From Pseudomonadota bacterium (GTDB taxonomy: Bacteria > Pseudomonadota > Gammaproteobacteria > Burkholderiales > Sulfuriferulaceae): a DNA stretch of 64,000 nucleotides. The translations under genes and the position numbers were made by a program. This document shows positions 16,716-29,076 of the stretch, one piece after another. Numbering within the stretch: the first letter of the stretch is position 1; every line of letters starts with the position of its first letter. The stretch covers positions 55,224 to 119,223 of the forward strand of contig JAJZUW010000001.1 in the NCBI GenBank assembly GCA_021845925.1, in the 5' to 3' direction. The notes under the pieces were generated by a model that searched no databases, was not told the origin of the DNA, and worked only from the letters and a program-made list of their open reading frames with translations.

Positions 16716-18956
16716 ATGAAATTCCGTTTTCCCGTGGTGATTATTGACGAGGATTTCCGTTCGGAAAATGCCAGCGGACTGGGTATCCGCGCCCTGGCAA
16801 AGGCGATCGAGGACGAAGGTACCGAGGTGCTTGGTGTGACCAGCTATGGCGATCTGTCCAGCTTTGCCCAGCAGCAGAGCCGTGCATCCGCTTTTATCCT
16901 GTCCATTGATGATGAAGAGTTTTCATCGTCTGGTGCGGCAAATCACGCGGTGGAGCAGATCCGGCTGTTTGTTGAAGAAATCCGTTTTCGCAATGCCGAC
17001 ATTCCGATTTTTCTGTATGGCGAAACCCGCACCTCACGACATATCCCGAATGATGTGCTGAAAGAACTGCACGGGTTCATTCACATGTTCGAAGACACAC
17101 CGGAGTTTGTTGCCCGCCATATCCTGCGCGAAATCAAGACCTATCTGGATTCATTGGCACCACCTTTCTTCCGCGCACTGACGCATTATGCGTCGGATGG
17201 TTCCTACTCCTGGCATTGTCCCGGCCATTCGGGCGGGGTGGCATTTCTCAAGAGTCCGGTCGGGCAGATGTTTCACCAGTTTTTTGGCGAAAACATGTTG
17301 CGCGCCGACGTTTGCAATGCGGTGGAAGAGTTGGGCCAACTGCTCGACCATACCGGGCCGGTGGCGGCATCGGAACGCAATGCAGCGCGTATTTTCAATG
17401 CCGATCATCTGTTTTTCGTCACCAATGGGACTTCGACTTCCAACAAGATTGTCTGGCATTCCACCGTGGCGCCGGATGACATTGTGGTGGTGGATCGCAA
17501 CTGTCACAAATCGATCCTGCACGCCATTATCATGACCGGTGCGATTCCGGTGTTTCTGATGCCGACACGCAACAATTACGGCATCATCGGTCCGATTCCG
17601 CTGGAGGAATTCCGGCCTGAGAACATCCGCAAGAAAATCGAGGCCAATCCATTTGCCCGTGGCGCCAATGCTCAGCCGCGTGTGCTGACCATTACCCAGA
17701 GCACCTATGACGGTGTGCTGTACAACGTTGAAACCATCAAACAGATGCTGGATGGCGAAATCGACACCCTGCATTTTGACGAAGCATGGTTGCCGCATGC
17801 CCCGTTCCATGACTTCTACAAGAACATGCACGCCATCGGCCGTGACCGGTCAAGGTGCCGTGAATCCCTGATGTTTTCTACCCAGTCCACCCACAAGATG
17901 CTGGCCGGCCTGTCGCAGGCCTCGCAGATTCTGGTGCAGGACAGCCAGAACCGCAAGCTGGATCGGGATGTCTTCAACGAAGCATTTCTGATGCACACCT
18001 CTACCAGTCCGCAATACGCGATTATTGCTTCGTGCGACGTCGCGGCTGCCATGATGGAACCTCCAGGCGGAACTGCGCTGGTGGAAGAATCCATTCTGGA
18101 ATCGCTGGATTTCCGGCGTGCCATGCGCAAGGTTGACGAGGAATATGGCGATTCCTGGTGGTTCAAGGTGTGGGGGCCGGATGAACTGGCCGAAGAAGGG
18201 GTTGGCGAACGCGAGGACTGGGTTCTGCGTGCACATGACCGTTGGCATGGTTTTGGCAAGCTGGCGCCCGGCTTCAACATGCTGGACCCGATCAAATCCA
18301 CCATTATCACGCCAGGACTGGATGTGGATGGTGATTTTGATGACACCGGCATGCCGGCGGCCATCGTGACCAAATATCTGGCCGAACATGGCGTGATCGT
18401 CGAAAAAACGGGCCTGTATTCATTTTTTATCATGTTTACCATCGGCATTACCAAGGGCCGCTGGAATACCATGGTCACCACCCTGCAGCAATTCAAGGAC
18501 GAATATGACCGCAACCAGCCATTGTGGCGGGTGTTGCCCGAATTTGTGTCCAAATATCCCCGTTATGAGCGCATGGGTTTGAAAGACCTGTGCGATGCGA
18601 TCCATGGCATCTACAAGGCCAACGATGTGGCCCGCCTGACGACAGAAATGTACCTGTCCAACATGGAACCGGCCATGAAACCGGCGGATGCCTACGCGCG
18701 GATGGCGCACCGCGACATCGAACGTGTCGAGATCGACAAACTGGAAGGGCGGATCACCAGCGTGCTGCTGACACCTTATCCGCCTGGTATTCCGTTGCTG
18801 ATTCCAGGCGAACGGTTCAATTCCACCATCGTGCGTTATCTGAAATTCGCGCGTGATTTCAACGAGCGTTTTCCAGGATTCGAAACCGATATCCATGGCC
18901 TGGTCAAGGAAGTGATCGACGGCAGATCGTTTTACTACGTGGATTGTGTCAGATGA
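16716..18956 (+). CDS. Orn/Lys/Arg decarboxylase (AdiA/LdcA-like)
   Basis: This 746-residue, fold-type I PLP enzyme decarboxylates a basic amino acid to a polyamine or diamine. It has an N-terminal wing domain (about 1-130), the large PLP domain with the Schiff-base lysine K394 in STQSTHKMLAGL, and the C-terminal domain. Length fits biodegradative arginine decarboxylase AdiA (about 755) and the Pseudomonas lysine decarboxylase LdcA better than ornithine decarboxylase SpeC (about 711). Substrate cannot be decided by eye. It has its own probable promoter and a hairpin after the stop. Confidence 0.9.
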   Translation: MKFRFPVVIIDEDFRSENASGLGIRALAKAIEDEGTEVLGVTSYGDLSSFAQQQSRASAFILSIDDEEFSSSGAANHAVEQIRLFVEEIRFRNADIPIFLYGETRTSRHIPNDVLKELHGFIHMFEDTPEFVARHILREIKTYLDSLAPPFFRALTHYASDGSYSWHCPGHSGGVAFLKSPVGQMFHQFFGENMLRADVCNAVEELGQLLDHTGPVAASERNAARIFNADHLFFVTNGTSTSNKIVWHSTVAPDDIVVVDRNCHKSILHAIIMTGAIPVFLMPTRNNYGIIGPIPLEEFRPENIRKKIEANPFARGANAQPRVLTITQSTYDGVLYNVETIKQMLDGEIDTLHFDEAWLPHAPFHDFYKNMHAIGRDRSRCRESLMFSTQSTHKMLAGLSQASQILVQDSQNRKLDRDVFNEAFLMHTSTSPQYAIIASCDVAAAMMEPPGGTALVEESILESLDFRRAMRKVDEEYGDSWWFKVWGPDELAEEGVGEREDWVLRAHDRWHGFGKLAPGFNMLDPIKSTIITPGLDVDGDFDDTGMPAAIVTKYLAEHGVIVEKTGLYSFFIMFTIGITKGRWNTMVTTLQQFKDEYDRNQPLWRVLPEFVSKYPRYERMGLKDLCDAIHGIYKANDVARLTTEMYLSNMEPAMKPADAYARMAHRDIERVEIDKLEGRITSVLLTPYPPGIPLLIPGERFNSTIVRYLKFARDFNERFPGFETDIHGLVKEVIDGRSFYYVDCVR

Positions 18957-21372: not shown

Positions 21373-21400
21373 ACGGGAGGCTGCATACGGCGGATTCCGT

Positions 21401-21424
21401 CCCGCACCGGTGGACAGGTGCGGG
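21401..21424. terminator. Hairpin between grxD and cphA
   Basis: CCCGCACC (21401-21408) and GGTGCGGG (21417-21424) pair perfectly. No T tract follows on either strand, so its role as terminator for the two convergent genes is uncertain. Confidence 0.35.
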
Positions 21425-21474
21425 TGCGGTTTGTCGGATCATGATACCGGTGCGCTGTCAGTGACATTCGGGGT

Positions 21475-24051
21475 TTAGGTGTTCTGTCCGGCGACGCGCT
21501 GGGCGATGTGCGCAAGTGCTTCATCGACCTGATCGATCAGGATCAGGCACAAATCACCGGGTTCCAGTTTGTCCAGCGCATAGTCAATTGCGGTGAATTC
21601 GCCGGTAATGGCGACCGTCTCACGGACGCGATCCGCATGCTGCAAACCTTCGCTGAGCAAGCGGAGCACTTCGCCATCTGCGCGTCCGCGCTGGCACTGG
21701 TCCTGGTACAGAACCACGTGATCGAATGTCTTGCCCAGAATTTCGGTTTGCTGGCGCAGGTCTTCGTCGCGCCGGTCGCCCGCACCGCTGATCACCACGT
21801 GCCGGCGTCTGGCCGGCATGTTTTCAATGGCGGTAACCAGTGCCAATATGGCATCCGGGTTGTGACCGTAATCGGCAATGACCGTGGCGCCGTGGTATTC
21901 GAACAGATTGAACCGTCCGGGTGCGGTCTGCGGGGAGTTGACGAAACTGCCCAGCGCATCGCGGATGATGGATGGCGAGATGCCCAGCGACCAGGCAGCC
22001 GCAATCGCAGCCATGGCATTTTCGACCTGGAACGCCAGACTGCCGTTCAGGGTCAGTGGAATGCCGGCCAGCGCAAACCGTTCCTCGCGCTTGCCTTCAC
22101 GCAGCACAATGGCCTGATCTTCGACAAAGACGACGGGCAGGCCACGGGCGCAGTGGGTGGCAATCACCGGGTGTTTGCGGTGATGGGCAAAATAGATCAC
22201 CCGTCCCGGGCAGCTGTTGGCCATGCGGACGACGACCGGGTCGGCTGCATTGAGAACCGCAGTTCCCCTGGAAGACACGTTTTCGACAATGATGCGCTTG
22301 ACCACTGCCAGTTCATCGACCGTGTTGATGTAATTGAGTCCGAGGTGATCGCCAATGCCGATATTGGTGATGATGGCGACATCGCACTGGTCAAATGCCA
22401 GCCCTTCGCGCAGCAGGCCACCACGTGCTGTTTCCAGCACCGCAGCGTCCACATCGGGGTGAGACAGAATGTTGCGCGCACTTTTGGGCCCGCTGCAGTC
22501 GCCGGTATCGATACGCTGCTGGTTGATGTAGACACCATCCGAGTTGGTCATGCCGGTACACCAGCCATTGTGTTGCATGATGTGGGCGACCAGACGCACG
22601 GTGGTGGTTTTGCCATTGGTGCCTGACACGGCAACCAGCGGAATCCGACCCTGGTTGCCCGTGCGGAACATCATGTCGATGATGGCGCTACCCACGTCGC
22701 GCGGTTTGCCGAACGATGGCGACAGATGCATGCGCAGACCTGGTGCTGCATTGATTTCGACGATACCGCCACCCTGACTTTCGAGCGGCAGGTGAATGGC
22801 GTTGCACAGGATATCGACGCCACAAATGTCCAGGCCGATCATGCGTGCCGCGTCGATGGCGCGTGCCGCCAGTTCGGGGTGCACGTCATCGGTCACATCG
22901 GTGGCGGTGCCGCCCGTGCTCAGATTGGCATTGTTGCGCAACAGCACCAGCTGGCCGATTTCAGGAATACTGTCAGGAGTCAGGCCCTGTTTTTCGAGTG
23001 TGACAAGGGCGATTTCATCCATGCGAATCTTGCTGAGCGATGTGGCATGGCCATCGCTGCGCCGGCTGTCGCTGTTGATCTTGTCGACCAGCTGCATGAC
23101 GGTGCTGTGTCCATCGCCAAATACGTGAGGCGGATCGCGTCGGGCCGCAGCAACCAGTTTTTCATCGATAATCAGCAGACGATAATCATGGCCGGTGATA
23201 TAGCGTTCGACCATCACCGGGGTGCTGATGCGGGCAGCCGCATGCCAGGCGGCAACGATCTGTTCACGGGTTTCCAGGTTGACTGCCACGCCGCGTCCCT
23301 GGTTGCCAAATTGTGGTTTGACGGCCACTGCGCTGCCGATTTCCTGTGCGCATCGCCAGGCGTCTTCGGCATCGGCCACCGGCCGTCCGGCTGGTACGGG
23401 CACGCCAACTGCGGCAAGCAGGGATTTGGTCAGTTCCTTGTCCTGGGCAATGGCCTCGGCAACGGCGCTGGTTCGATTGGTCTCCGCAGCCAGGATGCGC
23501 CTGCTTTTGGCGCCCCAGCCCAGCTGAACCATGCTGCCTTCGGTCATCCTCCGCCAGGGGATGCCACGGCGGATGGCGGCATCCACGATGGATCGCGTGC
23601 TGGGGCCGAGACGCAGGTCTTCATCCAGGGCGCGCAGTTCATTCAGGGCGGCGGCTGCATCGAATGACGTGTTGGCCGCTGCGGCCTGGCAAAGGGCAAG
23701 TGCGAGTTCCAGGGCACGCCGGCCAACGGCTTCTTCCGAGTATTCAACCACCACCTGGTAGACCCCGGATTCCAGCGTTTCGGTTGTCCGGCTGAACGTC
23801 ACCGGGCAGCCAGCCACGGCCTGCAGCGACAAGGTTGCGATCTCGAGGGCATGCGCCATGGGGATGTGCGGATCGCTGCCAACCGGATTCAGGGCGCCCA
23901 GTTCGGGAAACCGCGCGCGCAGCGCAGCTTCAAAGCTGGGCAGGCGAGCCAGGTCGGTTTCGTCGCCGGAACAGGCGACAATTGCCTCGACAGAGCAGTG
24001 TTTGCTCCAGAGATTGGGGCCGCGCAAGGCGCGAATTCGTGAAACTTGCAT
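21475..24051 (-). CDS. cphA: Cyanophycin synthetase CphA
   Basis: CphA builds the storage polymer multi-L-arginyl-poly-L-aspartate, adding aspartate to the backbone and then arginine to side chains, each step using ATP. The 858-residue protein has the N-terminal domain (about 1-160), an ATP-grasp domain (about 200-460) and a Mur-ligase-like domain with an intact P-loop GTNGKTT at 477-483. The C-terminal lobe has FNLFEYHGATVIADYGHNPDA. Length fits CphA1 enzymes. AGGAAC precedes the ATG. It lies 22 bases downstream of its paralogue and should share its transcript. Confidence 0.95.
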   Translation of the reverse strand: MQVSRIRALRGPNLWSKHCSVEAIVACSGDETDLARLPSFEAALRARFPELGALNPVGSDPHIPMAHALEIATLSLQAVAGCPVTFSRTTETLESGVYQVVVEYSEEAVGRRALELALALCQAAAANTSFDAAAALNELRALDEDLRLGPSTRSIVDAAIRRGIPWRRMTEGSMVQLGWGAKSRRILAAETNRTSAVAEAIAQDKELTKSLLAAVGVPVPAGRPVADAEDAWRCAQEIGSAVAVKPQFGNQGRGVAVNLETREQIVAAWHAAARISTPVMVERYITGHDYRLLIIDEKLVAAARRDPPHVFGDGHSTVMQLVDKINSDSRRSDGHATSLSKIRMDEIALVTLEKQGLTPDSIPEIGQLVLLRNNANLSTGGTATDVTDDVHPELAARAIDAARMIGLDICGVDILCNAIHLPLESQGGGIVEINAAPGLRMHLSPSFGKPRDVGSAIIDMMFRTGNQGRIPLVAVSGTNGKTTTVRLVAHIMQHNGWCTGMTNSDGVYINQQRIDTGDCSGPKSARNILSHPDVDAAVLETARGGLLREGLAFDQCDVAIITNIGIGDHLGLNYINTVDELAVVKRIIVENVSSRGTAVLNAADPVVVRMANSCPGRVIYFAHHRKHPVIATHCARGLPVVFVEDQAIVLREGKREERFALAGIPLTLNGSLAFQVENAMAAIAAAWSLGISPSIIRDALGSFVNSPQTAPGRFNLFEYHGATVIADYGHNPDAILALVTAIENMPARRRHVVISGAGDRRDEDLRQQTEILGKTFDHVVLYQDQCQRGRADGEVLRLLSEGLQHADRVRETVAITGEFTAIDYALDKLEPGDLCLILIDQVDEALAHIAQRVAGQNT

Positions 24052-24073
24052 GCTGTTCCTTTGTGGGTGCAGG

Positions 24074-26260
24074 TCAACCCTGATTCAGACTGTAAGCCAT
24101 GAGGCCTGCGCTGATGACATCAGGTGCCAGATTCAGTGCGTGGGCTGCGGCAATGGCCGCCAGAATCTGCGCACGATCCATGACGTGCACGGGCAACTGG
24201 CTGGCCGGCATCAGTTCGATGCTCAGGCTGGTATGACGAAGCACCACCTGCCCATCCACGATGGTCACGACATGCCCGTTGTTTTGCAGGTGTTCAGCCA
24301 GTATGGGCAGTCCGGCATCTTCGCTGTACAGGTAAACCTTGCCATCGCACAGGCTGATCATGTCATGCAGGCCCGGATCATCGGCATTGAGTACCGCGCT
24401 GCCCTCGGGCAGGACCACGTCGACGAAGGTGCGGTAGATCATGAACCGCTTTTCGTCGTTGTGCATGGCGTAAGGGGTAAAATCGAACTCGCGGTCGATG
24501 CCGGTAATCACGCTGACCAGGCAGCGATCATAGGCGAGACCATTGTGCACCAGCTCGATTGCACGCTGTTCGGTAACGGCAACGGTGATCGCCGGATTGA
24601 GCAACAGCTTGTGCGTTCCCTGCCAGTTGGCCCGATCGCCGGTTTCGATCTGGCGCTGGTCGATGAACAGGCCATGGCGGCAGGCCATACCCACCTGCTT
24701 GTGCTGCAGTTGCGCCAGATAGGCTACCAGCCGGGTGATTTCCGTTCGTCCGTTGTTGCCGCACACCGTGATCAGGGGGATGCGGCCTGTGTTGTTCTGC
24801 GGGAACAGGTGTTCGATGATGGCGGTGCCCACGGGCCTGGACGACCCCTGAGCCGGTTTCAGGTGCATCAGAAGTCCGGGACCGGCATTGACTTCAACAA
24901 TGGCGCCTTGCTGGGGCTCCAGCGGCTGGCTGATGTCTTCGACAACCAGATCGATGCCGGCGATGTCCAGGCCGACCACGCGGGCGGCCAGACAGACAAT
25001 GGCTGCTGTTTCCGGGTGCACCAGATCGGTGACATCGAAAGCCACATTGCCGATCCGCTGCACGACAACCTTTTTGCCCGGATCCGGAATATCGTCCGCA
25101 GTATAGCCTTGCCGTTCCAGTTCGAGCCGGCAGGCTGAATCCACACCCACAAGATTGAGCGGATGGTTTTCTGTTTCGCCACGACGTGGGTCGGTGTTGA
25201 TCTGCAGGGCGATCAGCTCGCGGATGCTATGGATTCCATCGCCGGTAATGCTGGCGATTTCGCCACGCGCAGCCGCAACCATGCGGTTGCCCACCACCAA
25301 TAGTCGGTGTTCCTGTCCATGAATGTGCCGTTCGACGATGACATCTTCGTCTTCCTCGCTGGCAACCTGCCAGGCTGTTTCAATTTCGGACTGGCGATCC
25401 AGGTTGATGAAAACCGCGCGGCCGTGGTTGCCGCTCAGCGGCTTGACGACAACCGGCAAACCGATTTCGCAGGCGGCTTCCCAGGCTTCGCTGGCACTGT
25501 GCACCAGAATGCCCTGCGGAACCGGAATGCCGCATTGGCTGAGCAGTTGTTTGGTCAGTGCCTTGTCGCGCGAGATGGTTTCGGCAATTGCGCTGGTCTG
25601 GTCGGATTCGGCAGTCCAGATTCGCCGCTGAGCCCGTCCGTAGCCGAGCTGGACCAGGTTGCCGCTATTCAGGCGGATATGGGGAATGTTCCGGTTGTCG
25701 GCAGCATCGACGATTGACGACGTGCTCGGGCCCAGCAAGGTTGATTCGGCCAGGTCTGTCAGTTCGGCCACCGCGGCCGCGACATCAAAGGGCTGGTTTT
25801 TCATGGCGGCCAGTACCAGTTCCCGGGCCAGTTCGATGGCGCGGCGCGCCACGGTTTCATGCCAGGCGCGCACCACGACCTTGTACACTCCGCGCGTGTC
25901 CATTTCGCGTGCGCGGCCAAACCCCGCTGGCATGCCGGCCAGCACCTGCAGTTCCAGGGTGACATGTTCCAGAATGTGGGCGGGCCATGTACCGTCATGC
26001 AGTCGTTTCAGAAAGCCGCCACGTTCGCCGATGCTGCAGTGATGTTCGATCAGGCTTGGCAACCAGCTGGTCAGCCGCTCGTTGAAGCCGGGAATCCGGT
26101 TGGACGGCCAGTCTTCCAGTTCGCCGATATCGACCCAGACTTCGAGGACGGGCCGGTAGGTCCAGATATTGGGGCCATTCAGAAATAATGTGCGTATAAA
26201 ACGCAAGTCGCTGTCGGGTGGTACACTGTCGGCGACAGGGTGATCAGTTGGTGCGGTCAT
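24074..26260 (-). CDS. Second cyanophycin synthetase-like protein (CphA'/CphA2-like)
   Basis: The 728-residue protein aligns with CphA along the N-terminal and ATP-grasp domains (RHIHGQEHRLLVVGNRMVAA; VVVKPLSGNHGRAVF). It differs at two points. The Mur-type P-loop reads GNNGRTE at 501-507, with Arg505 in place of the lysine. The protein also ends about where the last Mur lobe should start, about 130 residues short of CphA. Only the ATP-grasp site looks able to use ATP. This recalls cyanobacterial CphA2, which has one working site and polymerises beta-Asp-Arg dipeptides. Whether this paralogue does the same is inference. It is first of the two-gene minus operon. Confidence 0.9.
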   Translation of the reverse strand: MTAPTDHPVADSVPPDSDLRFIRTLFLNGPNIWTYRPVLEVWVDIGELEDWPSNRIPGFNERLTSWLPSLIEHHCSIGERGGFLKRLHDGTWPAHILEHVTLELQVLAGMPAGFGRAREMDTRGVYKVVVRAWHETVARRAIELARELVLAAMKNQPFDVAAAVAELTDLAESTLLGPSTSSIVDAADNRNIPHIRLNSGNLVQLGYGRAQRRIWTAESDQTSAIAETISRDKALTKQLLSQCGIPVPQGILVHSASEAWEAACEIGLPVVVKPLSGNHGRAVFINLDRQSEIETAWQVASEEDEDVIVERHIHGQEHRLLVVGNRMVAAARGEIASITGDGIHSIRELIALQINTDPRRGETENHPLNLVGVDSACRLELERQGYTADDIPDPGKKVVVQRIGNVAFDVTDLVHPETAAIVCLAARVVGLDIAGIDLVVEDISQPLEPQQGAIVEVNAGPGLLMHLKPAQGSSRPVGTAIIEHLFPQNNTGRIPLITVCGNNGRTEITRLVAYLAQLQHKQVGMACRHGLFIDQRQIETGDRANWQGTHKLLLNPAITVAVTEQRAIELVHNGLAYDRCLVSVITGIDREFDFTPYAMHNDEKRFMIYRTFVDVVLPEGSAVLNADDPGLHDMISLCDGKVYLYSEDAGLPILAEHLQNNGHVVTIVDGQVVLRHTSLSIELMPASQLPVHVMDRAQILAAIAAAHALNLAPDVISAGLMAYSLNQG

Positions 26261-26280
26261 GGAATGTCAGGTTTCTATAA

Positions 26281-26348
26281 GTCAGTGCTGTACTGACAGA
26301 TAACGCACAAGTAAAATCAAAGTTTACCTGAAGGCACAAAACTTGTGC
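26281..26348. promoter_or_regulatory. Divergent control region of the cyanophycin cluster with two palindromes
   Basis: Between the divergent starts at 26260 and 26385 lie two perfect inverted repeats: GTCAGT-GCTGT-ACTGAC (26281-26297) and GCACAA-AAC-TTGTGC (26334-26348). An extra GCACAA half-site is at 26305-26310. A TATAGA -10-like element for the minus gene abuts the first palindrome. They are good candidates for operators; no regulator gene is adjacent. Confidence 0.5.
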
Positions 26349-26384
26349 ATGACGGTGCAAACTGGTGAATCCCAAATTAAAGTC

Positions 26385-28631
26385 ATGGTCGTGAGCAGCA
26401 ACTTCAATTCCCTGATTCCGCCTGCCTGGCGGGCGCAGGTGGACGAACATTTGTCCGCGGACGAGCGGGTTGTGGCCTGTTTGCCGCTGGATCTCGACGA
26501 ACAGGGCCGGTTTACCAGTGGTATCCTGGTTCTGACGAACTTGAGGCTGCTGGTCCGCCATGATGGATTGCCCTGGCGCGAATGGTTGCTGCGCCCCGAC
26601 CAGCATATGGAACGACGGGATCATGCCGGCGTCGGAACACTGCTGGTCTACCAGTCTGGCACGCGGCTGCTCAAAGTGCATCACACACTGGATCATCTGG
26701 TGGCGGCGCGGAATCTGGTGGCCCAGTTCGAAGGCCTGTCTGCCAAAGACGGGTCGGCGACTGCTTCGTTACACTGGTGCGACAGATGTGGCGCCACCAT
26801 GGACGAGCAGGACGGTGAGTGCGCTTCCTGCACGGAAACGGCTGACGGCAGGGAGACAGGCTGGGCGCTGTTGCGACTCTGGCGGTTCGCCCATCCTTAC
26901 CGCTTCGGTTTGTTCGCCGGCTTTCTGTTGACGCTTGGTGCGACCGCCGCCACGCTGGTGCCACCGTACCTGACCATGCCATTGATGGACAAGATCCTGA
27001 TTCCATACGAGCGCGGGCATCACATCGACTCGACCCTGGTGGCTGACTATCTGCTGGCCTTGCTGGCTGCTGCGGTCATGGCCTGGTTGCTGGGCTGGGC
27101 ACGCACCTTGTTGCTGGCCAGGGTCAGTGAACGCATCTGTATGGATTTGCGGGTTGCCACCTTCGAGCACTTGCAAAAGTTGTCGCTGGCGTATTTTGGC
27201 GGCAAGCGTACCGGCGATCTGGTGAATCGCATCGGCAGCGAATCCGACCGGATTTCGGTGTTCCTGTCGCTGCATTTGCTGGATTTTGTCATTGACGTGC
27301 TGATCATGCTGATGACGGCGGCGATCCTGATGTCGATCAATCTCAAACTGGCGCTGGTGACTTTGCTGCCAATCCCGTTGATTGTGTGGATGATTCATCT
27401 GGTACGCGACAGGCTTCGTCTCGGGTTTGAAAAAGTTGACCGGGTCTGGGGCGAAATCAGCAATGTGCTCACCGACACCATTCCGGGTATCCGGGTGGTC
27501 AAGGCGTTTGCCCAGGAAAGCCGCGAGATCGACCGCTTCCGGGAAGCCAACCGGCACAATCTGCGCATCAACGATCGGGTCAATGCGGTGTGGGCATTGT
27601 TTTCGCCCAGCGTGACCCTGCTCACCGAAGTCGGTTTGCTGGTGGTCTGGGCATTTGGTATCTGGCAGGTTGGCCATCGGCATATCACGGTTGGTGTGCT
27701 GACTGCTTTTCTGACTTACATCAGTCGCTTTTATGCGCGCCTGGATTCCATGAGCCGGATTGTGTCGGTCACCCAGAAAGCTTCTGCGGCGGCGCGGCGG
27801 ATTTTCGACATTCTTGACCAGGTGCCTGGCGTGCCGGAAGCGGCAGAGCCGGTGCAGGTTCCACGCCTGCAAGGTGCCATTTCGCTGCGTCACGTGGGTT
27901 TCCGTTATGGTGCACGCAGTGTGATTGCGGACATGAATCTGGACATTGCGCCAGGAGAGATGATTGGCCTGGTTGGCCACAGCGGTTCGGGCAAAAGCAC
28001 GTTGGTCAACCTGATCTGCCGGTTTTACGATGTCACCGAAGGTGCGGTCCTGATTGACGGGGTGGATATCCGTCAGCTGGCGTTGAATGATTACCGGCGT
28101 CATATCGGACTGGTCTTGCAGGAGCCGTTTCTGTTTTTCGGCACCATTGCCGAAAACATTGCCTATGGGCGGCCGGATGCGACGCATGAAGAAATCGTCG
28201 CCGCGGCGCGCGCGGCCCATGCACATGAATTTATCCTGCGCCTGCCGCATGGTTATGATTCGCAGGTCGGCGAACGCGGGCATGGGCTGTCGGGCGGCGA
28301 ACGGCAGCGGATTTCGATTGCGCGTGCCTTGCTGATCGATCCGCGCATCCTGATTCTGGATGAGGCAACGGCTTCGGTGGACACCGAAACAGAACGGGAA
28401 ATCCAGGCTGCGCTTGAAAATCTGGTGCGTGGCCGGACAACGATTGCGGTCGCCCATCGGCTGAGCACACTCCGGCATGCCGATCGTCTGGTAGTTCTCG
28501 ATCGCGGACGCATTGTCGAGGTCGGCCGGCATGAAACCCTGTTGGCCATGAATGGCGCTTATGCCCAGTTGTACGAGGCCCAGGCGCGCCAGATCGATGC
28601 TGGTGAGGAGGAAACCGATGAACCGGATTGA
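26385..28631 (+). CDS. Cyanophycin-cluster ABC transporter (fused membrane and ATPase domains)
   Basis: From ATG 26385 the protein has 748 residues. An N-terminal soluble part (about 1-160) contains a PH-like stretch and a zinc-ribbon pair CDRCGATMDEQDGECASC. A six-helix exporter-type membrane domain follows. The ATPase domain is complete: Walker A GHSGSGKST, signature LSGGERQRISIARAL, Walker B ILILDEATAS. Close relatives are found beside cphA in betaproteobacteria and are known as cyanophycin-metabolism-associated ABC transporters; the substrate is not established. An ATG at 26349 is an alternative start. The 3' end overlaps the DUF1854 gene by 14 bases. Confidence 0.88.
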   Translation: MVVSSNFNSLIPPAWRAQVDEHLSADERVVACLPLDLDEQGRFTSGILVLTNLRLLVRHDGLPWREWLLRPDQHMERRDHAGVGTLLVYQSGTRLLKVHHTLDHLVAARNLVAQFEGLSAKDGSATASLHWCDRCGATMDEQDGECASCTETADGRETGWALLRLWRFAHPYRFGLFAGFLLTLGATAATLVPPYLTMPLMDKILIPYERGHHIDSTLVADYLLALLAAAVMAWLLGWARTLLLARVSERICMDLRVATFEHLQKLSLAYFGGKRTGDLVNRIGSESDRISVFLSLHLLDFVIDVLIMLMTAAILMSINLKLALVTLLPIPLIVWMIHLVRDRLRLGFEKVDRVWGEISNVLTDTIPGIRVVKAFAQESREIDRFREANRHNLRINDRVNAVWALFSPSVTLLTEVGLLVVWAFGIWQVGHRHITVGVLTAFLTYISRFYARLDSMSRIVSVTQKASAAARRIFDILDQVPGVPEAAEPVQVPRLQGAISLRHVGFRYGARSVIADMNLDIAPGEMIGLVGHSGSGKSTLVNLICRFYDVTEGAVLIDGVDIRQLALNDYRRHIGLVLQEPFLFFGTIAENIAYGRPDATHEEIVAAARAAHAHEFILRLPHGYDSQVGERGHGLSGGERQRISIARALLIDPRILILDEATASVDTETEREIQAALENLVRGRTTIAVAHRLSTLRHADRLVVLDRGRIVEVGRHETLLAMNGAYAQLYEAQARQIDAGEEETDEPD

Positions 28632-29076
28632 GCAGACTGAAGATGGCTTGCTGATCCTGACTGATACCGCGAGTGGCAGTCAGGTGAGTGTTGTTCCGGT
28701 CAGGGCGTTTCCGTTCAGTGATCCCGAACATGGCATCAGCCTGGTTGACAGCCAGGGCCATGAACGCTGGTGGATTGCGGACCTGGCACAACTCGAAACC
28801 GGTCAGCGCAAACTGCTTGAAGCTGCGCTGGCGGAACGCGAATTCATGCCGACCGTGCAGGCCATTACCCATGTGTCCAGTTATTCCACCCCCAGCACCT
28901 GGCAGGTGGAAACCGATCGCGGCGCAACCGGACTGGTGCTGAAAGGCGAGGAAGACATCCGCCGGTTGCCGGATGGACGGCTGGTTATCAGTTCTGTCAA
29001 CGGTATCCAGTATCTGGTGGCGGATCCAGCAGGGCTGGACCGGGCCAGCAAACGCAGACTGGACCGGTTCCTGTAG
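28618..29076 (+). CDS. DUF1854 family protein of the cyanophycin cluster
   Basis: The 152-residue soluble protein begins inside the ABC gene after a strong AGGAGG site. It shows the DUF1854 pattern: HGISLVDSQGHERWWIADLAQL, then EREFMPTVQAITHVSS. Members occur next to the ABC transporter in cphA clusters. Their biochemical role is unknown. Overlap and ribosome site suggest it is made in step with the transporter. Confidence 0.85.
   Translation: MNRIEQTEDGLLILTDTASGSQVSVVPVRAFPFSDPEHGISLVDSQGHERWWIADLAQLETGQRKLLEAALAEREFMPTVQAITHVSSYSTPSTWQVETDRGATGLVLKGEEDIRRLPDGRLVISSVNGIQYLVADPAGLDRASKRRLDRFL

What the first reader, a model, noticed from the sequence alone, without database searches (positions are those of the whole stretch)
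24074..26260. Second cyanophycin synthetase has a broken Mur-type P-loop
The paralogue upstream of cphA reads GNNGRTE (501-507) where CphA reads GTNGKTT (477-483), and it lacks the last Mur lobe. Cyanobacterial CphA2 likewise keeps one working site and uses beta-Asp-Arg dipeptides. Here the same loss may have arisen in a tandem pair in a betaproteobacterium, with the ATP-grasp site retained. It could recycle dipeptides, prime chains or regulate CphA.
Basis: partly seen in the sequence, partly recalled or inferred. Interest (0 to 1): 0.55.

Follow-up and report, generated by a model that had tools for sequence, protein, structure and literature searches.

The report
Split cyanophycin synthetase: primer-cutting half
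In this bacterium the job of one polymer-making enzyme appears to be divided between two neighbouring genes, and the "broken" copy seems to be the half that cuts the polymer to start new chains, beside a transporter that nearly always travels with the pair.

Summary
The 728-aa protein (A, cphA') reads GNNGRTE at 501-507; its neighbour (B, cphA) reads GTNGKTT. A is not a recent CphA2 look-alike. It is one half of an old tandem pair: A-type proteins occur in 51 of 150 genomes of the order. The three CphA1 active sites are partitioned. A keeps the N-domain primer-making site (Cx19HxxEH, 61/61 and 80/80) and has lost the Mur site's RGG (kept in 0/60 and 0/81). B has lost the N site (0/61 and 0/79) and keeps the Mur site. 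Selection mirrors this: within A the N domain is the most constrained, within B the least (three genera). A keeps its ATP-grasp catalytic residues, but three aspartate-recognition elements are gone. The pair travels with an ABC exporter and a DUF1854 protein (50 of 51 genomes) and usually lacks cyanophycinase. Best reading: A cuts chains into primers for B in trans, a step shown in vitro only for engineered cyanobacterial enzymes. Tandem cphA genes beside an ABC gene are already in print; I found the site partition in no paper seen. The product and A's ligase substrate are unknown.

The parts
24074..26260 (-). cphA' (A): N-domain site kept, ATP-grasp apparently retargeted, Mur-like domain degenerate and truncated; 728 aa
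25964..26038 (-). Cx19HxxEH motif of A (C75, H95, E98, H99): putative endo-cyanophycinase (primer-making) site
   Evidence: exact motif in 61 of 61 and 80 of 80 A proteins; site proven in SuCphA1 (PMC9262961)
25418..25432 (-). ATP-grasp P-loop of A, GNHGR with His279 (= His267 of SuCphA1)
25262..25264 (-). Gly333 of A, in place of Arg323 (contacts the beta-carboxylate of incoming Asp in TeCphA1)
24869..24871 (-). Leu464 of A, in place of Arg458 (near the alpha-carboxylate of incoming Asp in TeCphA1)
24740..24760 (-). Degenerate Mur P-loop GNNGRTE of A (501-507)
24554..24571 (-). EQRAIE of A in place of ETARGG
   Evidence: RGG absent from every A protein examined
21475..24051 (-). cphA (B): N site lost, ATP-grasp with the Asp-recognition set and Gln for His267, Mur domain intact; 858 aa; starts 22 nt after the stop codon of A
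23839..23853 (-). Remnant of the N-site helix in B (HALEI in place of HxxEH)
23293..23307 (-). ATP-grasp P-loop of B, GNQGR (Gln in place of His267)
22603..22623 (-). Intact Mur P-loop GTNGKTT of B (477-483)
26343..28631 (+). Divergent MsbA-like ABC exporter (NF052233, cyanophycin metabolism-associated ABC transporter); start codon uncertain (26343 or later)
   Evidence: 1264 bits, cut-off 880 (scanned from 26388)
28552..29076 (+). DUF1854 protein (NF052234, cyanophycin metabolism-associated); start codon uncertain
   Evidence: 198.8 bits, cut-off 150; Pfam PF08909

Best explanation
cphA' and cphA are the two halves of an ancient duplicated and subdivided cyanophycin synthetase. B elongates: its ATP-grasp and Mur-like domains keep the known set for adding Asp and then Arg (with Gln in place of His267), but it has no site for making its own primers. 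A supplies the missing third activity: its N-domain metallopeptidase-like site cuts cyanophycin-like chains into segments that B can extend. A's Mur site is dead, the domain surviving mainly as scaffold. A's ATP-grasp domain still has the residues that activate a chain's C-terminal carboxylate but has lost free-aspartate recognition, so it probably joins something other than Asp (a beta-Asp-Arg dipeptide, a chain segment or another amine). Shown: the sequences, the clade-wide partition, mirrored selection, gene linkage. Inferred: every catalytic activity, that A acts in trans on B's product, the nucleophile, and that the product is cyanophycin-like.
For: Exact Cx19HxxEH in 61/61 and 80/80 A and 0/61 and 0/79 B. 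H57, F67, R70 and E87 are also 51/51 in A. In B, C59 is kept in 0/61 and 0/79, H57 in 0/61 and 0/79, H83 in 3/61 and 0/79. R603 and D607, at the Mur-domain positions that contact N-bound polymer in SuCphA1 (S603 and E607 there), are invariant in 81 and 60 A proteins while the rest of that domain decays. Omega medians: the N domain is lowest of A's domains (0.087, 0.073, 0.037) and highest of B's (0.152, 0.220, 0.090) in Herbaspirillum, Cupriavidus, Achromobacter. Mean identity of the Mur core 0.45 in A, 0.69 in B. G domain of A: K220, K261, R309, D431, E450 51/51 and H267 50/51, but R323, S396 and R458 0/51, all three kept in B (80 named loci agree). The trans reaction is known in vitro: SuCphA1 with dead G and/or M sites makes primer-dependent TmCphA1 primer-independent (PMC9262961). 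The 12 canonical single CphA1s I read have all four N-site residues aligned, 12 of 12.
Against: R. eutropha H16 has two CphA homologues, and reviews say no cyanophycin was found in the wild type or on expressing these genes (PMC11362209; PMC8560796; both citing Adames 2013, not read), so the product may not be ordinary cyanophycin. His267 matters in two CphA1s (PMC9427784) and is Gln in 58 of 60 B, so B's Asp-adding step is uncertain. B still keeps H79 in 50/61 and E82 in 41/61. A pure cutter would not need to conserve its ATP-grasp site. CphA1s of T. morbirosei and A. baylyi (alignment) lack the N site; whether their genomes hold an A partner was not searched. L087 and L088 of G056 lack it, one beside a cyanophycinase, although that genome also has A. 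No complex or activity could be tested here.
Confidence: 0.58

Rival explanations
1. [quoted passage not shown] Not exclusive of the best explanation.
For: Mur P-loop and lid lost, as stated for CphA2 (PMC9427784). Arg458 lost in A and, by score inference, in both CphA2 structures. ATP-grasp catalytic residues conserved.
Against: N-site motif intact, absent from CphA2. Arg323 lost in A but inferred kept in CphA2. Closest structures are CphA1. The own genome has no match to cyanophycinase TIGR02069, which would release dipeptides. The N domain, not G, is A's most constrained part.
Confidence: 0.17
2. A is the missing betaproteobacterial cyanophycinase: its N domain mobilises the store in organisms without CphB, CphI or CphE. 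Not exclusive of the best explanation.
For: Only 2.8% of 903 betaproteobacterial CphA1 genomes have a recognisable cyanophycinase and unknown isozymes are proposed (PMC10206079). A has an intact endo-cyanophycinase motif. In the order sample 47 of 51 pair genomes have no cyanophycinase over cut-off while 4 of 4 single-CphA1 genomes have one.
Against: The N-domain activity measured in SuCphA1 is slow and described as tuned for priming (PMC9262961). Isoaspartyl dipeptidases were not found in the own genome either (PF01112, TIGR01975, PF04952: 0 matches). Seven of 51 pair genomes do have some TIGR02069 match at E<=0.001, four of them over cut-off. A lies 22 nt upstream of B, so the two are probably co-expressed.
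Confidence: 0.15
3. The four genes make and export a different Asp/Arg-type peptide rather than a storage polymer; A trims or caps the chain before export by the ABC protein.
For: ABC (E<=1e-200) and DUF1854 are in the same 50 of 51 pair genomes and in 0 of 99 others, even where not adjacent (G146, G115, G034); the 51st (G122) has an ABC fragment at its contig end. They sit beside a lone CphA in G328. No cyanophycin reported in R. eutropha. Both arginines that contact the carboxylates of Asp are gone from A.
Against: B keeps the Asp- and Arg-adding residues examined except His267. MsbA-like transporters carry many substrates, and nothing here shows the direction or cargo. One named locus (L200) has no ABC within its 13 kb.
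Confidence: 0.22
4. A is a catalytically dead, decaying copy kept only as a structural or regulatory subunit.
For: Lid mostly lost and Mur core poorly conserved.
Against: N-site and ATP-grasp catalytic residues are near-invariant and N-domain omega medians are 0.037-0.087.
Confidence: 0.06

Closest known systems
CphA1 (e.g. Synechocystis UTEX2470 SuCphA1, PDB 7txv; Trichodesmium TeCphA1, 7wae)
   Same: Same fold and domain order N-G-M (VIA Z 41.9 and 45.0); N-site motif and ATP-grasp catalytic residues kept in A
   Different: A lacks a working-looking Mur site and the free-Asp recognition residues; a second protein (B) carries those but lacks the N site
CphA2 (Gloeothece 7ta5, Stanieria 8fxh)
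   Same: Mur P-loop and lid lost (PMC9427784); Arg458 lost (inferred from scores)
   Different: CphA2 lacks the N-site motif (PMC9262961) and is described as cyanobacterial; Arg323 inferred kept in CphA2, lost in A; lower similarity in sequence and fold
The two CphA homologues of Ralstonia eutropha H16 and other neighbouring cphA copies (Adames 2013 and Fueser 2007: seen only as citations)
   Same: Probably the same pair: the Cupriavidus loci carry A and B with ABC and DUF1854
   Different: In what I read of the literature the copies are treated as synthetases; the site partition is not described. C. necator itself was not among my 80 loci
'Group 1' cphA cluster of activated-sludge bacteria (PMC10687191, passages)
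   Same: Two cphA copies with an ABC transporter gene and no cphB; both copies said to be expressed evenly in Accumulibacter
   Different: The paper adds flanking insertion sequences, mentions no DUF1854 and makes no residue analysis in the passages seen
NCBIfam NF052233 and NF052234
   Same: Window neighbours match both over cut-off
   Different: Names state association only; no paper found by the term DUF1854

Membership tests
CphA1 | N-G-M domain order and fold | tested here: met
   (last Mur lobe absent in A)
CphA1 | Mur-like site (P-loop Lys, ETARGG, DH, lid) for Arg addition | tested here: not met
   A; residues present in neighbour B
CphA1 | Free-Asp recognition (R323, N394, S396, R458) | tested here: not met
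   A keeps only N394 (46/51); R323, S396 and R458 0/51; all four kept in B
Primer-independent CphA1 | Cx19HxxEH N-domain site | tested here: met
   A met; B not met
CphA2 | Mur P-loop and lid lost | tested here: met
   window A; 34 of 80 named A proteins still have P-loop Lys, DH and the lid His
CphA2 | N-domain site motif absent | tested here: not met
   motif intact in A; feature of CphA2 from PMC9262961
CphA2 | Closer to CphA2 than CphA1 in sequence and fold | tested here: not met
CphA2 | Groups with CphA2 in a tree | not tested
   no CphA2 sequence could be obtained as letters
CphA2 | ATP-dependent polymerisation of beta-Asp-Arg | not testable with these tools
   needs an enzyme assay
Cyanophycinase (TIGR02069) | A match to the family in the window's genome | tested here: not met
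   G000: 0 matches
NF052233/NF052234 neighbourhood | ABC and DUF1854 over curated cut-offs | tested here: met

The most novel reading that the evidence does not exclude
A four-gene, transporter-linked pathway found across betaproteobacteria: a synthetase whose three activities are divided between two proteins builds an Asp/Arg peptide, the cphA' half cuts chains and rejoins or caps them through a retargeted ATP-grasp site, and the ABC exporter with DUF1854 moves the product out of the cytoplasm, so that this is not nitrogen storage at all.
Probability: 0.18. Interest if true: 0.82.

Novelty: new variant of a known kind. Interest (0 to 1): 0.6.

Why it matters
Three loose ends become testable with one pair of genes. 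Why do nearly all betaproteobacteria with 'CphA1' lack a cyanophycinase (2.8% of 903 have one; called unanticipated in PMC10206079)? Why was no cyanophycin found in R. eutropha despite two homologues (PMC11362209)? How do CphA enzymes without the N-domain site get primers (remnant strands were proposed in PMC9262961)? If A serves B in trans, at least some 'primer-dependent' enzymes are halves of a pair and should be assayed together. It would also be a clear natural case of an enzyme with synthetic and hydrolytic sites being split by duplication, and cphA' could be a separate, adjustable primer source for cyanophycin production.

Tried and rejected
Chance or sequencing error as the cause of the P-loop change: rejected, since several Mur-site motifs are altered together and the pattern is clade-wide.

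Strict split of G in A and M in B (His267 kept in A, Gln in B): weakened. Gln267 also occurs in L087, L088 and L125, which otherwise keep the Asp- and Arg-adding residues examined; two B proteins (L070, L073) have His; and A has lost Asp recognition. I therefore do not claim that B's ATP-grasp is dead.

Placing A with CphA2 in a tree: not possible. Three PDB searches meant to bring CphA2 letters into view did not; I fell back on score shifts from one-residue query variants (109 against 111; 113 against 112), which is indirect. The plasmid collection gave no cyanobacterial CphA2 in the rows listed (63 further records were not listed).

Viral contigs: no relative. DUF1854 fold: model pLDDT 86.7 but pTM 0.53; no Foldseek match at E<=0.001; best VIA Z 5.6 to a DUF1285 protein over the second half, too weak to use. 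Consensus promoter and terminator scans in 21380-26450 were below the shuffled means.

G328 (single CphA with all sites plus ABC and DUF1854) as a pre-duplication relative: only suggestive. The assembly is 8% contaminated, the contig ends inside the gene, it is the only hit among 48 genomes of its order, and its position differs between domain trees.

Sequences in B counts include two pieces of one gene split by Ns (L047), left out; one of the 61 B is such a piece without an N domain. G030 lacks B because its contig ends. Omega values come from pairs within a genus and are not independent.
Full report
What is there. The two ORFs are as described: 24074-26260(-), 728 aa (A, cphA') and 21475-24051(-), 858 aa (B, cphA), with 22 nt between the stop of A and the start of B. 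A reads GNNGRTE at 501, B reads GTNGKTT at 477. Both match the cyanophycin synthetase subfamily model PRK14016; A stops at model position 717 of 871 and has no Pfam Mur-ligase hit. Divergent from A lie an MsbA-like ABC exporter (NF052233, 1264 bits) and a DUF1854 protein (NF052234, 198.8 bits), both named by NCBI as cyanophycin metabolism-associated.

How general. I searched 150 genomes of the order with A: 55 have a match. In 51 of these (window included) there is an A-type protein, and in 50 of those a B-type as well (G030's contig ends; in G005 and G051 the two lie on different contigs). The other four (G041, G086, G113, G127) have one canonical CphA1. A scan of named genomes gave 80 loci from Cupriavidus, Ralstonia, Pandoraea, Achromobacter, Bordetella, Herbaspirillum, Collimonas, Nitrosospira, Gallionella, Sideroxydans, Accumulibacter, Sulfuricella, Thiobacillus and others; 79 of 80 show A followed by B, and in the other (L168) the contig ends. 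ABC is found in 76 of the 80 and as a cut fragment in two more (L186, L224); L206 has almost no upstream DNA, and L200 has none within 13 kb. The tandem copies are therefore old and widespread, not an event in this genome. Neighbouring cphA copies are in print (PMC5178258; PMC10687191).

Which sites are kept. I numbered residues on SuCphA1, retyped from tool output and checked against the residue names in the two structure papers. N-domain site: C59, H79, E82 and H83 are kept in 51 of 51 A, and also H57, F67, R70 and E87. The exact motif Cx19HxxEH is in 61 of 61 and 80 of 80 A and in 0 of 61 and 0 of 79 B. In B the loss centres on C59 (0/61, 0/79), H57 (0/61, 0/79), R70 (0/61) and H83 (3/61, 0/79), while H79 (50/61) and E82 (41/61) often persist. 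In the 12 canonical single CphA1s that I read, the four residues are aligned in 12 of 12, though the exact 19-residue spacing holds in only 4 of those 12 (L136 and L137 there are the genomes of L113 and L114). Mur site: Lys499 is in 15 of 51 A of the order sample and 67 of 80 of the Cupriavidus-biased named set, but the RGG of ETARGG is in 0 of 60 and 0 of 81 A against 59 of 60 B, the sixtieth being a fragment. Most simply, the Mur site was lost once at the base of A, and P-loop and lid then decayed in separate lineages, the window among them.

The ATP-grasp site. In A, the residues that bind ATP and Mg and activate the chain end (K220, K261, R309, D431, E450: 51/51; H267: 50/51) are kept, but R323 (0/51), S396 (deleted 51/51) and R458 (0/51) are gone; in B R323, N394, S396 and R458 are kept (50 of 50, the L047 fragment aside) and H267 is Gln in 48 of 50. 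The 80 named loci agree: R323, S396 and R458 0/80 in A; Gln267 79/79 in B. In TeCphA1 N394 and R323 contact the beta-carboxylate and R458 the alpha-carboxylate of the incoming aspartate, S396 lines its pocket, and His267 is placed to stabilise the acyl phosphate (PMC9427784). So A can plausibly still activate a chain end but not accept free aspartate the CphA1 way. Putting Arg for Leu at position 458 of a query raised phmmer scores of all five CphA1 chains by 3.2-3.3 bits and lowered those of both CphA2 chains; Arg at 323 raised both CphA2 chains by 3.2, and the two glutathione synthetases as well. I infer that CphA2 shares A's loss of Arg458 but not of Arg323, a residue general to the wider family.

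Selection. Mean pairwise identity by domain: A: N 0.65, G 0.66, Mur core 0.45, lid 0.28; B: N 0.58, G 0.71, Mur core 0.69, lid 0.70. Median dN/dS (NG86, pairs within genus, not independent) in Herbaspirillum, Cupriavidus and Achromobacter: A-N 0.087, 0.073, 0.037, the lowest domain of A each time; B-N 0.152, 0.220, 0.090, the highest of B each time. The Mur-domain positions that contact polymer bound at the N site in SuCphA1 (S603, E607) are Arg and Asp in every A examined (81 and 60 sequences), though the domain around them decays.

Structure and tree. AlphaFold2 on A (49-row alignment): mean pLDDT 91.0, pTM 0.86. VIA-align Z: TeCphA1 45.0 (706 aligned, 36% identity), SuCphA1 41.9, T. morbirosei 37.8, A. 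baylyi 33.8; CphA2 28.3 (572 aligned, 25%) and 25.1. In FastTree trees A is one clade and B is one clade in all four data sets, with support 1.0 and 0.79 on the full length but only 0.39 for A with the G domain and 0.33 for B with the Mur core; A+B+L125 is one clade with support 1.0 on the full length. L125 joins A on the full length (0.92) and with the N domain, but B with the G domain.

Company. ABC (searched at E<=1e-200) and DUF1854 each occur in 50 of 150 genomes, the same 50, all within the 51 with A. The missing one, G122, is an 86% complete assembly whose pair lies on an 8,438-base contig; the named contig of that length (L186) carries a 358-residue ABC fragment running off its end. 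In G146, G115 and G034 the two genes are not next to the pair, yet present. In a phylum sample DUF1854 is in 21 of 398 genomes: 20 with the pair and G328; none of the 8 genomes with a canonical single CphA1 has it. Cyanophycinase over cut-off: 4 of 4 single-CphA1 genomes, 4 of 51 pair genomes (G056, where it lies beside an extra cphA; G021, G068, G102), 1 of the other 95; three more pair genomes (G005, G075, G112) have weaker matches, of which G112's is 94.8 bits against a cut-off of 126.6. The window's own genome (99.94% complete) has no match to cyanophycinase, IaaA, IadA or PF04952.

Mechanism. The simplest reading is duplication with complementary losses: B polymerises, A supplies the primer-making cut. 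That this works in trans is shown for engineered cyanobacterial proteins: SuCphA1 with dead G and/or M sites makes TmCphA1 primer-independent (PMC9262961, section read). All catalytic statements about A and B remain inference. What A's ATP-grasp joins is open; loss of both carboxylate-contacting arginines would suit a nucleophile whose carboxylates are already bonded (a chain's N-terminal unit) or a plain amine, and the inferred shared loss of Arg458 keeps the CphA2-like dipeptide alive. Whether the product is cyanophycin is also open: R. eutropha has two homologues and no cyanophycin was reported, and the constant ABC exporter hints at transport. The rivals overlap with the best explanation, so the confidences need not sum to one.

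Papers: PMC9262961 (outline with abstract, sections 6, 7 and 12, passages), PMC9427784 (sections 7 and 8, passages), PMC10206079 (outline with abstract, part 1 of Results, Discussion, passages), PMC8560796 (section 4, passages), PMC5178258, PMC10687191, PMC11362209 and PMC8050183 (passages only). Adames 2013, Krehenbrink 2002, Fueser 2007 and Klemke 2016 were seen only as citations. From memory, not from a call: the Adames abstract reports a shortened 'J-loop' region in CphA'. Searches for related work in print; no title or abstract start listed named the site partition, and no paper held the term DUF1854; subscription papers are mostly not held.

Noticed in passing
   Followed up: partly
   Followed up: partly
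window 16716-18956 (+): An amino acid decarboxylase gene (best hit arginine decarboxylase PRK15029, 646 bits, below its cut-off of 1167) lies about 2.5 kb from the cphA pair.
   Followed up: no
window 26388-26910 (+): The ABC exporter has about 170 residues before its membrane domain, with a CxxC...CxxC zinc-ribbon-like stretch and no Pfam match; some relatives match the model only from about position 150-160 on (G082, G124, G075, G003).
   Followed up: no
L150-L182 and L209; L042, L045, L046, L050: 34 of 80 named A proteins still carry the P-loop Lys, DH and the lid His but have lost RGG: apparent intermediates of Mur-domain decay; four in the order sample look alike.
   Followed up: partly
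PMC10687191 (passage): Two Tetrasphaera MAGs are reported to have a longer and a shorter cphA copy in series beside cphB: perhaps an independent split pair.
   Followed up: no
L070 and L073 (B), L089 and L106 (A): Exceptions at position 267: His in two B proteins, Arg in two A proteins.
   Followed up: no
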